A stretch of DNA of 39,399 nt from an uncultured Coriobacteriia bacterium. GTDB taxonomy: Bacteria > Actinomycetota > Coriobacteriia > Coriobacteriales > QAMH01. Below the pieces are notes generated by a model. It had not been told where the DNA came from, did not search any database, and saw nothing but the letters and a program-made list of their open reading frames with translations. Shown here piece after piece: positions 25,824 to 29,677 of this stretch (position 1 is the stretch's first letter; every line of letters starts with the position of its first letter). The stretch covers positions 1 to 39,399 of the forward strand of contig CAOKAE010000015.1 of NCBI GenBank assembly GCA_948466335.1. Reading direction: 5' to 3'. Both the position numbers and the translations under genes were made by a program.

Positions 25824-25908
25824 ACACTTTCATGAGCGAACTTTGGCGGAAATTCACACTTTCATGAGGGAACTTTCGAAGAAACTCGCATTTTTATGAG
25901 GGAATACG
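25824..25908. repeat. 32-bp-period tandem repeats, 2.7 copies
   Basis: Units start at 25824, 25856 and 25888. The first two share ACACTTTCATGAG-GAACTTT and continue with AAA-TC; the third is diverged (TTTTTATGAGGGAA). They lie between hslO and the antitoxin promoter. There are no spacers, so this is not CRISPR. They may bind a regulator or mark a past insertion. Confidence 0.75.
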
Positions 25909-25924
25909 CTTGTTTTCTAGAGAT

Positions 25925-25952
25925 GCTATACTTAATTACGAATTTGTATAGC
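25925..25952. promoter_or_regulatory. Toxin-antitoxin operator over the -10 box
   Basis: GCTATAC (25925-25931) and GTATAGC (25946-25952) are perfect inverted repeats with a 14-bp centre. The left arm overlaps a -10-like TATACT (25927-25932), and the right arm abuts the RBS AAGGAG (25953-25958). This is the usual place for antitoxin autorepression. Confidence 0.6.
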
Positions 25953-25963
25953 AAGGAGCTGCT

Positions 25964-26299
25964 ATGGAACAAGTGCAGATGAACACGCGCATCGGGGTCG
26001 AGGTCAAACGCGTTGGAGACGAGGTGCTTCGTCGCTATGGCTATTCACCCTCATCGGCGGTGCAGGCTCTCTGGGCTTATCTCGCTGAGCATAATGAGCC
26101 ACCCGCCTTCATGCCATCGAAAGCAACGCCAAACGACGTCGAAGCCAGGAAGCGTGAGGTTGCTGACGGGGTCGGACTTGCTATAAGGCTTGCAGTCGAA
26201 GCTGGGGTGATTTCTTCCGGTGCAGGTTGGGTTGATGAGCTCGATTATGACGAGCTGCGAGAATTGGCCTGGGAGGAACGAGGCGTCTTCGATGACTGA
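25964..26299 (+). CDS. RelB/DinJ-like antitoxin
   Basis: A 111-residue protein. Its start, QVQMNTRIGVEVKRVGDEVLRRYGYSPSSAVQALWAYL, resembles the ribbon-helix-helix DNA-binding domain of the RelB/DinJ family (TRI.-V...--VL...G-S.S.AV.A). The C-terminal part is acidic (ELDYDELRELAWEERG) and would wrap the toxin. RBS AAGGAG is 5 bases before ATG 25964. It overlaps the PIN toxin gene by 8 bp, a typical coupled antitoxin-toxin order. Pairing of this antitoxin type with a PIN toxin is less usual than with RelE/YafQ. Confidence 0.78.
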   Translation: MEQVQMNTRIGVEVKRVGDEVLRRYGYSPSSAVQALWAYLAEHNEPPAFMPSKATPNDVEARKREVADGVGLAIRLAVEAGVISSGAGWVDELDYDELRELAWEERGVFDD

Positions 26300-26774
26300 T
26301 AGTCACCTCACCCTGCTTATCGATACAAATATCTGGCTAGATTATTATTTGGGGCGTAAGGGTGCCGCAGATGCTGCGGCTGCCGTCCAATGCGCGCTTG
26401 ATCATGAGGATGCGATTGTTGTCACGCCGGGTATTCTCAAGGACGTGTTCTATCTTGTCGGTTCAACGATTAAAAGAAGGGCGCGCAAAGAGGAGGGGAG
26501 CCTGAGTGAAAGCTCTGCCCTGGTAGCTAACGAGGCCTCATGGGCGTGCCTGTCAAGCATGCAAGGCTTGGCTGCTGTTTTGAACCAGGGCTTCGGCGAG
26601 CATTTGGAAGCGAGCGCCTTGCGCCCGAAGAATGCAGATTACGAGGATAACTTGCTTCTCGCCACAGCGAGGAATGCCAAACTTGATTACATCATCACGA
26701 GTGATAAGGGCCTGCTGGCAAACGAGGTGGTGCCGGCGCTCGCGCCGGCAGAGTATGCGGGGCTGAAGCGATAA
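26292..26774 (+). CDS. PIN-domain toxin (VapC-like ribonuclease)
   Basis: A 160-residue PIN-fold protein. Acidic active-site residues appear as Asp11 (LLIDTNIWLDYY), Asp119 (ADYEDNLLLATA) and Asp138 (YIITSDKGL); these coordinate Mg2+ for RNA cleavage. ATG 26292 lies inside the end of the antitoxin gene, and a longer upstream frame is only antitoxin shadow. VapC-type toxins cleave tRNA or rRNA when freed from the antitoxin. A GC-rich hairpin lies in its last codons (26731-26750). It converges on the 655-codon unknown gene. Confidence 0.85.
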   Translation: MTDSHLTLLIDTNIWLDYYLGRKGAADAAAAVQCALDHEDAIVVTPGILKDVFYLVGSTIKRRARKEEGSLSESSALVANEASWACLSSMQGLAAVLNQGFGEHLEASALRPKNADYEDNLLLATARNAKLDYIITSDKGLLANEVVPALAPAEYAGLKR

Positions 26775-26827
26775 AGGAAAAAGGGAGCACAAGCCTTTTT
26801 ATACAGATGCTTACGAGAATGGGATGC

Positions 26828-28795
26828 TCAGGCCTGTTTTGAAATGCTGTTACATTTTGCGACGTATGCGCCAAGCTCCCTCTTGTTGTTCTCGAGTTTT
26901 TGCAGCTCATTGCTAATTCGAAAGATGTCATCGGAAATAAAGCGCTCTTGCTCTCGTACCCAATTGTGCTCACCGGATTCGATGACGGGGCTCTTCATTT
27001 TTGAACGTATTTCCTCCAGCTGTGATTCAAGTCGCTTTTTCTCTTGTTGATATTTTGAGAGGACGGGATCAAGTGATGTGACGATATGTTCTTCAGCTTG
27101 CCGCCTTATGTCTTGGCATATTTCAAGTAGCGAGACGATAACGGACTGCAGTTTGGTAAAGGCAGCTATCGATTTAAGCTCATTAAAGAGATTGAGAGCT
27201 ACTCTTGCTTTCTTGATACGAAACTGAATTAAGTCGAAGTTTTTGTATGTGCGAATAAAATATCCTGGGTACGGTATAGTCTCATCTGCGAGGGCGTCAA
27301 TGCCCTCTGCTTGTCCAAACCGTTTATATAGCTCTGTGAGCAGTTTTTGGCGTGCTAATCCAACGCGAACGAAATCGACGGAATTGTTATTCTCGGAATT
27401 TAGGCTAAATGTGCTCTGTATCTTCGATTGCAGCTCAAGGCTATAGTTTAGTCTCTGGTTGTCCTGATCCCTGCTAACGCTCATGACAAAGTTCAATATT
27501 TGCTGTTTATCTTCGTTGCTGAGGTCAACAGCAGAAGGACACCTGTATACATCCGATGGGTTCCATTCGTCATACAAAACGAGGCTAAGACTATCTTGGG
27601 AGACGAGGTCGTTAAAACAATTGAGGTCCGTGAATTGCAAAAACGTAGACGCACATGAGACCATACGAAGCAAGTCTTTTAGCTCGATAAGGGCACGAGC
27701 AAAATACTTTTCAATAAATGCGACTTCTCCAATGGCATTGAACTCCTGCCAGTATTCAACTGCGTTTTCGAAGCATAATTTATAACTTGCAGGGGCGAGT
27801 TCGTACATGTCGGTGAAACCGGCCAATTCGAACAAGTGAGCTATGTTGTAAAAGATAATCAGCGGCGCATTAACTGCGTTTATGCCTTTGTAACATAGTA
27901 TTGATAAGAAATAGCTTGATCGACCGAATCCGAAGTTCGTCTTTAGTTCAATTTTCAAATCACCTGATGCGTCGAGATTTATCTGGAAATTATCCCACCC
28001 CAGTTTTCTAGATGAGTAAGCTACGACTTGGGGGTCTGCATCATAGCGGGCGTAAAGATCTTCAAGAATGGATGCCTGATAGTACTCAGGTAAATTGTCA
28101 ATGAGGCACTGATTTCCCGGCGTGATGACATAATCAAGTTCTGAACTCCCATAAGCTCCATTGAAACAACGACAATAGCTCTTTTTCGAGAACAAGCCAG
28201 GGACTAAAGAACGCGCCGTTTGTACAAATTCAGCGAATCTTTTGTCGTAATCGTCGAGGCATGCCACAAGCTTTCCACGCATTGTATCTAGTTTATTAAG
28301 GAGAGAGGCTGCATTCTTCCGGTTAAAGTCGCTGGGCAATTTCGAACCCCTCTCCAGGCTTTCTTCCTGGAGAGGGGCTTGGCGTATTGCATTTTCCCGA
28401 TCAGCGAGATATGAGACCGTATTGGGAGACAGCCATTGCGCATGGGGAGATACAGGGACCAAAACCCTAGGGTGCTGCTGACCGCATGTGGCCGCCAGCA
28501 GATTGTCATAAGTCCTAAGGACTCGTTGCATGTAGGTGTTATCTGCATCTCGATAAAAGGGCTGTGCGAAGTCTGGATTCTCTGTGGCAACAAGCTCGTC
28601 GAATAGCTCTTTGGCCCTTCGATGATCCCAGCCATGTATCGTGGCGCTCATTTCTTTGAACTTATCGACGATTTGCGAATTGTATGGAATACGCTCATAG
28701 CAAACGAACAGCTCTCCGCTTTCCTTGCGCTTAATCAGGCACATGACGTCAGTTGCAATTTCGCCAGAATCGATATGGGAGCTGGGGCTATCCAA
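26828..28795 (-). CDS. Unrecognised 655-residue protein with C-terminal coiled coil, likely acquired and phase-variable
   Basis: I do not recognise this family. The 655-residue product has no signal peptide or membrane helices. The N-terminal part (residues about 10-80) looks like mixed alpha/beta, the middle contains LKTNFGFGRSSYFLSILCYKG, and about residues 560-650 are strongly helical and charged (SKYQQEKKRLESQLEEIRSKM and EQERFISDDIFRISNELQKLENNKREL), suggesting a coiled coil. By eye the gene is much AT-richer than its neighbours and uses codons rare elsewhere, so it was probably acquired. TTG 28795 is the only good start in frame before the upstream TGA, with AAGGCAGGA as RBS; an ATG lies 17 codons in. 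Its promoter spacer contains a C14 tract. It sits beside a toxin-antitoxin pair. A defence role is speculation. Confidence 0.8.
   Translation of the reverse strand: MDSPSSHIDSGEIATDVMCLIKRKESGELFVCYERIPYNSQIVDKFKEMSATIHGWDHRRAKELFDELVATENPDFAQPFYRDADNTYMQRVLRTYDNLLAATCGQQHPRVLVPVSPHAQWLSPNTVSYLADRENAIRQAPLQEESLERGSKLPSDFNRKNAASLLNKLDTMRGKLVACLDDYDKRFAEFVQTARSLVPGLFSKKSYCRCFNGAYGSSELDYVITPGNQCLIDNLPEYYQASILEDLYARYDADPQVVAYSSRKLGWDNFQINLDASGDLKIELKTNFGFGRSSYFLSILCYKGINAVNAPLIIFYNIAHLFELAGFTDMYELAPASYKLCFENAVEYWQEFNAIGEVAFIEKYFARALIELKDLLRMVSCASTFLQFTDLNCFNDLVSQDSLSLVLYDEWNPSDVYRCPSAVDLSNEDKQQILNFVMSVSRDQDNQRLNYSLELQSKIQSTFSLNSENNNSVDFVRVGLARQKLLTELYKRFGQAEGIDALADETIPYPGYFIRTYKNFDLIQFRIKKARVALNLFNELKSIAAFTKLQSVIVSLLEICQDIRRQAEEHIVTSLDPVLSKYQQEKKRLESQLEEIRSKMKSPVIESGEHNWVREQERFISDDIFRISNELQKLENNKRELGAYVAKCNSISKQA
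28347..28377. repeat. Strong hairpin inside the unknown gene
   Basis: CCCCTCTCCAGG (28347-28358) and CCTGGAGAGGGG (28366-28377) form a perfect 12-bp stem with a 7-nt loop, in otherwise AT-rich coding sequence (codons for APLQEESLERG). It could pause transcription or mark an insertion. Confidence 0.75.
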
Positions 28796-28869
28796 CGAGA
28801 GTCCTGCCTTTCGTGGCCGGCGTGTTTCCAGAGGGCGTCTATTGGTTTTGAATACGCGTTGCTCTCGTC

Positions 28870-28901
28870 ATTATCGGGGGGGGGGGGGGTAAATTCGTCA
28901 A
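28870..28901 (-). promoter_or_regulatory. Candidate phase-variable promoter with C14 spacer tract
   Basis: On the minus strand TTGACG (28901-28896) and GATAAT (28875-28870) are separated by 20 bp, made of AATTTA plus fourteen C. With eleven C the spacer would be the optimal 17 bp. Homopolymer slippage would therefore tune transcription of the 655-codon gene, as in known poly-G/poly-C promoters. The predicted leader is about 68 nt. Box recognition is by eye. Confidence 0.6.
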
Positions 28902-28987: not shown

Positions 28988-29677
28988 ATGCACGAATCGT
29001 TCAAGACCTGGGAAACCAACAAGACGCTCGAGCATGCGCACAAGATTCAGGAGCGCGAGGCGATTCCCCAATCCACGTGGGATGTCGCGCCGAAGGATGC
29101 GTACTGCATCTTCATGCTCTTCAACCTGGAAGCTGCCGATGACGAAGGTCATTGCATTTTGGCACTCGGCCCGACCGATGGCGCTCTCGAGACCTATTCG
29201 TACTATCGCCACAGCACCAAGATCGAGGCGCCCGGCATCATGGCGTGTCTGAAGGATCCCATGACTTTCGAGCGGCTATGCGATGGGAGCGGCTGGATCG
29301 TCCACGGGCAGCCCGGCAACTACTGGAACGAGCATGTGAACGCCGCTATCGCCCTATGGTGCGACAAGGCAGCCTACGAGAAGGCCCGTGCCTACGCCGA
29401 AGCCAAGAAGGCAAACACGGGTACGTACAACCTCGTCACCTACAACTGCCTGACCTTCGTTGACGATGCACTCAAGCAGGCGGGTATACGTCTTGCGACA
29501 AAGAGTGGCAAGCGCGTGCGCACCATCGTTCCCAAGGAAGCGTTCTTCGAAATCGACAATGTCGAAGGAGCCCATAAGTTCGAGGCGTGGAAGTACTGGT
29601 TTGACTTGGGCAAGGCTCCGGATAACGGCCTGCGCACCATCGACGATGTGCCCGGCCAGGACAAGCCTCTCGAGTAG
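28988..29677 (+). CDS. Uncharacterised protein, possible permuted papain-like (NlpC/LRAT-type) fold
   Basis: A 229-residue protein with no signal peptide or membrane helix. DDEGHCILALGP places His55 in a GH context, and TGTYNLVTYNCLTFVDDALKQAG has Asn153-Cys154 at the start of a helix. A GH strand followed later by an NC-helix is the arrangement of permuted papain-like enzymes (LRAT, DUF4105-like and related amidases or acyltransferases), so a Cys/His hydrolase or transferase is plausible. AAAGGAG precedes the ATG. Base composition is closer to the chromosomal norm than the neighbour at 26828-28795. It converges with the cysteine synthase-like gene. The fold call is inference. Confidence 0.7.
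   Translation: MHESFKTWETNKTLEHAHKIQEREAIPQSTWDVAPKDAYCIFMLFNLEAADDEGHCILALGPTDGALETYSYYRHSTKIEAPGIMACLKDPMTFERLCDGSGWIVHGQPGNYWNEHVNAAIALWCDKAAYEKARAYAEAKKANTGTYNLVTYNCLTFVDDALKQAGIRLATKSGKRVRTIVPKEAFFEIDNVEGAHKFEAWKYWFDLGKAPDNGLRTIDDVPGQDKPLE

What the first reader, a model, noticed from the sequence alone, without database searches (positions are those of the whole stretch)
26828..28795. Unrecognised, AT-rich 655-codon gene beside a toxin-antitoxin pair
It is far AT-richer than its GC-rich surroundings by eye, has a TTG start, no known domain that I can name, a distinctive FGFGRSSYF segment and a long C-terminal coiled coil. Foreign composition, a switchable promoter and neighbouring toxin-antitoxin genes are the usual company of defence genes, so a new anti-phage or contact-related function is possible.
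Basis: partly seen in the sequence, partly recalled or inferred. Interest (0 to 1): 0.75.

Follow-up and report, generated by a model that had tools for sequence, protein, structure and literature searches.

The report
Orphan swap-in defence gene, switchable promoter
A foreign-looking gene of an undescribed protein family sits in a chromosomal slot that changes between sister species; its few known relatives replace the helicase in what look like anti-virus gene sets, so it is probably a part of bacterial immunity that can be flipped on and off, but this has not been tested.

Summary
An intact 655-codon TTG-start gene (minus strand, 28795..26828, 45% GC against 62% around it) belongs to no family in the libraries searched and lies beside a RelB/PIN pair. 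In a sister species with about 95% identical flanks, the 2,990 bp holding the pair and the gene are absent. Next to hsp33 the sister carries a UvrD-type helicase and an ankyrin protein instead, so this is a variable slot. Upstream of the gene, 14 C lie between TTGACG and GATAAT. As assembled the spacer is 20 nt, and eleven C would give 17, so an on/off promoter is plausible. In the 395 Coriobacteriales genomes held, relatives occur in three other genomes (two full-length at 32% identity, one cut by a contig end), plus one 34-residue remnant. In both full-length cases the gene is third in an operon, after an NYN-nuclease-like gene and a gene with an HsdS/Mad5-like C-terminus. Five further operons with the same first two genes carry P-loop helicases or ATPases of three unrelated kinds there. 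The window gene, with no P-loop, is thus a stand-alone copy of an exchangeable third component of a candidate DNA-targeting defence system; its genome shows neither partner. Mechanism is inferred and both structure predictions failed.

The parts
26828..28795 (-). The gene of the finding ('C'): 655-aa protein of an undescribed family, TTG start, no P-loop, C-terminal helical hairpin / coiled coil
28870..28875 (-). -10-like hexamer GATAAT (minus strand)
   Evidence: read; test
28876..28889 (-). Homopolymer of 14 C on the coding strand (G14 on +) inside the promoter spacer; candidate slippage switch
28896..28901 (-). -35-like hexamer TTGACG (minus strand); spacer to -10 is 20 nt as assembled
25964..26299 (+). 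RelB/DinJ-like antitoxin of the neighbouring toxin-antitoxin pair (weak match)
26292..26774 (+). PIN-domain toxin (PIN_3); start read as the ATG overlapping the antitoxin stop; convergent with the gene
25907..28895 (.). Variable segment (toxin-antitoxin pair + gene C) lying between the two blocks conserved in sister genome G002
25825..25905 (+). Three-copy direct repeat, 32-bp period (CACTTTCATGAGNGAAC), directly before the variable segment; also three copies in the sister genome
24898..25800 (+). Left conserved flank: hsp33-like gene (product name recalled, no family search run)
   Evidence: product name recalled
28988..29677 (+). Right conserved flank: divergent gene with a sub-threshold TseH-like match, followed by a cysK-type PLP enzyme (PALP)

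Best explanation
The gene is a stand-alone copy of an exchangeable third component of a modular, restriction-like candidate defence system of Coriobacteriales. Shown: its full-length relatives follow an NYN-nuclease-like gene (A) and a gene ending in an HsdS/Mad5-like recognition domain (B), in a slot that related operons fill with helicases or ATPases. Shown: in the window it lies with a toxin-antitoxin pair in a segment that the sister species lacks. Inferred: A and B recognise foreign DNA, and the slot gene acts on it or stops the infection. Inferred: the window copy acts without A and B, or with unlinked partners. Inferred: slippage in the C14 tract changes the -35/-10 spacing (20 nt as assembled, probably low or off; 17 nt with eleven C, on), so only some cells pay its cost.
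For: Relatives at 32% identity over the full length, E about 1e-93. C start overlaps B stop in L004, which suggests translational coupling. Of seven A-B loci with a readable third gene, two carry C (G296, G407), one a UvrD helicase (G301), two an SLFN-like ATPase (G409, G457), two a NERD-helicase matching PDC-M16A (G343 at E 9e-66; G412, cut by its contig end, read by eye as the same). Small gene D follows C in G296, G407 and G321 and follows the ATPase in G457. C lacks a P-loop and shows no convincing similarity to the other occupants. A carries NYN-type acidic residues invariant in 8 of 8. The plasmid relatives of A are followed by an N-6 methylase gene in 8 of 9 regions read, of 15 records hit. 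B matches mad5 E 1.8e-6. Variable slot. Purifying selection between two relatives, dN/dS 0.25. Phase variation by a G tract has a precedent in an actinobacterial phage-defence gene, pglX (PMC4365076, passages seen).
Against: The window genome shows neither A nor B, so the operon logic may not apply to it; it is about 97% complete. No relative has been tested experimentally. The two named relatives come from metagenome assemblies. In G407 the B gene is split over two frames. No length variation of the C tract has been seen: there is one assembly only, and several contigs of this genome end in poly-G runs that could be artefacts. The A-B operons carry no G/C run of 8 or more in the regions read.
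Confidence: 0.5

Rival explanations
1. A passing orphan: a recently acquired fragment of an A-B-C operon that lost its partners and has no function in this host; the ORF is still open only because it arrived recently.
For: A and B not found in the genome; third-position GC 0.48 shows poor amelioration, i.e. recent arrival; a 34-residue C remnant in G244 suggests that such genes decay.
Against: It is full length, has a ribosome-site-like sequence and its own promoter-like hexamers that flank a homopolymer better than 99.8% of simulated flanks, which a mere fragment would not be expected to carry.
Confidence: 0.25
2. A self-sufficient single-gene abortive-infection or toxic effector, independent of A and B, kept rare in the population by its slippery promoter.
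For: Own promoter-like site, no partners nearby, variable slot with a toxin-antitoxin pair; full length with no operon in this genome.
Against: Every full-length relative found is in an A-B operon (2 of 2); no known toxin or effector domain.
Confidence: 0.2
3. A contact-dependent or surface protein.
For: Surface structures are a predominant class of phase-variable functions (PMC11868660, passages seen).
Against: No transmembrane stretch, no secretion or surface family match, relatives in nuclease/specificity operons.
Confidence: 0.05

Closest known systems
MADS (methylation-associated defence system; PADLOC models mad1-mad8, roles of the parts recalled)
   Same: B's C-terminus matches mad5, the specificity-like component (E 1.8e-6 for L004, 2e-4 for L024, 0.0056 for L026); one slot ATPase matches mad8 weakly (E 3e-4)
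   Different: No active methyltransferase subunit seen in the Coriobacteriales operons, and the window gene matches no mad component
Type I restriction-modification (HsdS)
   Same: B matches specificity-subunit models weakly (best E 3.7e-5)
   Different: No HsdM or HsdR with B in the operons read; B lacks the catalytic N/D/S/EPP[YFWH] and SAM-binding patterns
NYN nuclease + N-6 DNA methylase pairs on actinobacterial plasmids
   Same: Gene A is homologous (37-39% identity for the best three) and is followed by a methylase-like recognition gene, often next to type I restriction genes
   Different: B is shorter and shares only its recognition-domain region with that methylase (hhalign 34%, E 4e-4); no C relative on plasmids by tblastn
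PDC-M16 (PADLOC candidate system)
   Same: One kind of slot-C occupant matches PDC-M16A at E 9e-66
   Different: It is the alternative to the window gene, not a detectable homologue
Pgl/BREX of Streptomyces coelicolor
   Same: Actinobacterial phage defence switched by a homopolymeric G tract (PMC4365076, passages seen)
   Different: There the tract is attributed to pglX; here it is in a promoter spacer, and no BREX match was found

Membership tests
Candidate A-B-C operon system (described here) | C-family protein, full length | tested here: met
   32% identity over the whole length to L011 and L012 proteins
Candidate A-B-C operon system (described here) | Adjacent NYN gene (A) and HsdS/Mad5-like gene (B) | tested here: not met
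   No A or B in the window or found in the genome; the window gene is therefore filed as an orphan relative, not as a complete system
Gabija / UvrD-helicase defence (GajB) | P-loop SF1 helicase | tested here: not met
   No Walker A motif in the window protein, no helicase match
MADS | match to a mad component | tested here: not met
   No PADLOC match of the window protein at E 1 or better
Phase-variable promoter (homopolymer in the -35/-10 spacer) | Homopolymer between recognisable hexamers | tested here: met
   C14 between TTGACG and GATAAT, chance 0.002
Phase-variable promoter (homopolymer in the -35/-10 spacer) | Length variation of the tract with expression change | not testable with these tools
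   No reads, no second genome holding the gene in this slot
Type II toxin-antitoxin pair (neighbour) | PIN toxin with overlapping antitoxin gene | tested here: met
   PIN_3 E 9e-16; antitoxin RelB-like, sub-threshold; ATG/TGA overlap read
Anti-phage defence gene | Reduces phage plating | not testable with these tools
   Needs an experiment

The most novel reading that the evidence does not exclude
The gene founds a new, P-loop-less effector family that substitutes for helicases in a previously undescribed modular immune system (NYN nuclease + methyltransferase-derived, non-methylating DNA reader + exchangeable effector), and that has also escaped as a single-gene, promoter-phase-variable defence cassette.
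Probability: 0.3. Interest if true: 0.8.

Novelty: new variant of a known kind. Interest (0 to 1): 0.52.

Why it matters
If right, it points to a modular restriction-like system in gut and rumen Coriobacteriales in which the effector is swapped as a cassette, and names a non-helicase effector family with no known fold. The stand-alone copy with a slippery promoter would let the effector be tested apart from its recognition parts. The full-text searches made here (in a PubMed Central open-licence library) did not turn up a description of the NYN + methylase-like pair as a defence system; that library lacks most subscription papers.

Tried and rejected
Distant homologues: the single-sequence and profile scans of genome contigs gave none and two; the viral-contig scans with the gene, a hand-made motif pattern and gene B gave no relative (the two motif hits were chance frames); plasmids and phages by tblastn gave none at E 0.01, and a 95-residue fragment at E 10 gave one chance-level match (E 2). 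The phylum search gave three weak hits besides the window's own: L079 lies antisense to a subtilase-like frame (subtilase named by eye), and L078 and L080 gave no local tblastn match; all were dropped. These scans are limited in reach: the first missed relatives that the second found, so relatives in other phyla (the low GC suggests some) are not excluded.

Structure: both AlphaFold jobs failed (mean pLDDT 42.9 for the whole protein; 36.1 for the conserved core), so no fold search was run. Sequence searches against solved structures found nothing for C or B; for A the best was 2qip at E 0.06 (that 2qip is NYN-like is recalled).

I considered the motif TNFG.G...YF as one remembered from other phyla; nothing in the calls supports that, and it is not used. 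Reading B as a degenerate methyltransferase rests on its shared recognition region and absent motifs and is inference. I tested whether C shares a domain with the other slot occupants; hhalign gave at most 5.7% probability.

Full report
What is there. The finding's coordinates hold one intact reading frame on the minus strand, 28795 to 26828, TTG start, 655 codons. Its GC is 0.45; outside the island no 1,968-bp stretch of the window falls below 0.577, and its third-position GC is 0.48 against 0.85-0.87 in the conserved flanking genes hsp33 and cysK. The longest frame in 500 shuffles of the island is 225 codons. The start is supported by a ribosome-site-like AGGCAGGA just upstream and by alignment of its Met with an internal Met of the relatives. 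Pfam, PADLOC, NCBIfam and PHROGs give no match above a cut-off; the weak ones are to coiled-coil stretches and scattered. There is no Walker A motif and no transmembrane stretch.

The slot. A sister genome of the same genus (G002, about 94-95% DNA identity in both flanks) matches the window up to 25906 and again from 28896. In between, the window has the RelB/PIN pair and the gene; next to hsp33 the sister has a 1,026-residue UvrD-type helicase with topoisomerase-type zinc ribbons and an ankyrin protein matching the candidate model PDC-M72A (E 5e-31). The sister's two flanks lie on different contigs, so the full length of its insert is unknown. The left edge of the segment falls directly after a three-copy, 32-bp-period direct repeat that both genomes carry. 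The gene is found in 1 of the 7 genomes held for the family, the window's own.

The promoter. On the coding strand, TTGACG, six bases (AATTTA), 14 C and GATAAT follow one another upstream of the gene. Ten of twelve hexamer positions match the consensus; 0.2% of 200,000 simulated flanks do as well. The spacer is 20 nt; eleven C would make it 17. This is the arrangement of known spacer-length switches (recalled), and a G tract is held to switch the actinobacterial phage-defence gene pglX (PMC4365076, passages seen). No variation has been observed here. Other runs of nine or more G/C exist in this genome, several at contig ends, so an assembly artefact cannot be excluded, although this tract lies inside a contig.

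The relatives. Searching all 395 genomes held for the order with a profile found matches in 5: the window's own genome, G296 and G407 (full length), G321 (308 residues, cut by the contig end) and G244 (34 residues). Identity is 32% over the full length. In both full-length cases the gene is third in an operon: A (157 residues), B (about 500 residues), C, then a small gene D; C overlaps the end of B in L004. D and a tyrosine-recombinase-like gene also follow C in G321 (the L004 copy of the recombinase matches solved integrases, E 3e-10).

The system. A is NYN-like: Pfam NYN E 0.0026, below cut-off, with acidic residues D21, D86 and D111 invariant in 8 of 8 aligned sequences. Its relatives on actinobacterial plasmids are mostly annotated NYN proteins. 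Of the 15 plasmid records hit, I read nine regions; in eight (H3, H4, H5, H7, H8, H10, H11, H12) the NYN gene is followed by an N-6 DNA methylase gene, in H2 not; type I restriction genes follow in H3, H4, H7, H10 and H11. B matches mad5 and type I specificity models at its C-terminus (best E 1.8e-6) but lacks methyltransferase motifs. In the order, nine genomes have a B match. G248 and G316 match only in the recognition region and are left out of the operon count. The other seven have A and B, with the third gene being C (2), a UvrD helicase (1), an SLFN-like ATPase (2) or a NERD-helicase (2; the G343 copy matches PDC-M16A at E 9e-66, the G412 copy is cut by the contig end and was judged by eye from its sequence). 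The SLFN-like matches are weak (E 3e-4 and 1e-3, below cut-off). C shows no convincing similarity to the other occupants.

Reading. The window gene is a lone member of an exchangeable effector slot, carried in a segment with a toxin-antitoxin pair, with a promoter built like a slippage switch. How it acts is not known: it has no recognisable catalytic motif and structure prediction failed. The most likely role is as an effector or helper in defence against foreign DNA, working with A and B in its relatives and acting alone or with unlinked partners here. It could also be a decaying orphan. I put 0.5 on the first, 0.25 on the orphan, 0.2 on a self-sufficient toxic or abortive-infection gene.

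Novelty. The protein family is not in the libraries searched and I found no description of the system (search listings only), so it is at least a new variant of a restriction-like defence kind. Without a test or a fold I do not call it categorically new.

Noticed in passing
25825-25905: Three-copy 32-bp-period direct repeat after hsp33, also in three copies in the sister genome (L045 1245, 1277, 1309), at the edge of the variable segment; may be a recombination target.
   Followed up: partly
L045 1366-5999 (sister genome G002): The same slot holds a 1,026-residue UvrD-type helicase with zinc ribbons and an ankyrin protein matching candidate defence model PDC-M72A.
   Followed up: partly
L024, L025, L026, L027, L028: A modular NYN + HsdS/Mad5-like + variable helicase/ATPase operon in Coriobacteriales, not in the window, that deserves study of its own.
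   Followed up: partly
L081, L082, L084 (actinobacterial plasmids): NYN + N-6 methylase pairs whose methylase has EPPF where N/DPPF would be expected (expectation recalled), in 3 of 3 checked; possibly non-methylating DNA readers.
   Followed up: partly
Own genome: contigs C1, C2, C7, C8 ends: Several contigs start or end in runs of 10 to 52 G; artefact, or real long tracts that broke the assembly.
   Followed up: partly
28988-29674: Divergent neighbour with a sub-threshold match to the TseH-like family.
   Followed up: no
L004 5545-5832, L028 1049-1360: Small gene D with what looks like an internal duplication follows two unrelated slot-C genes.
   Followed up: partly
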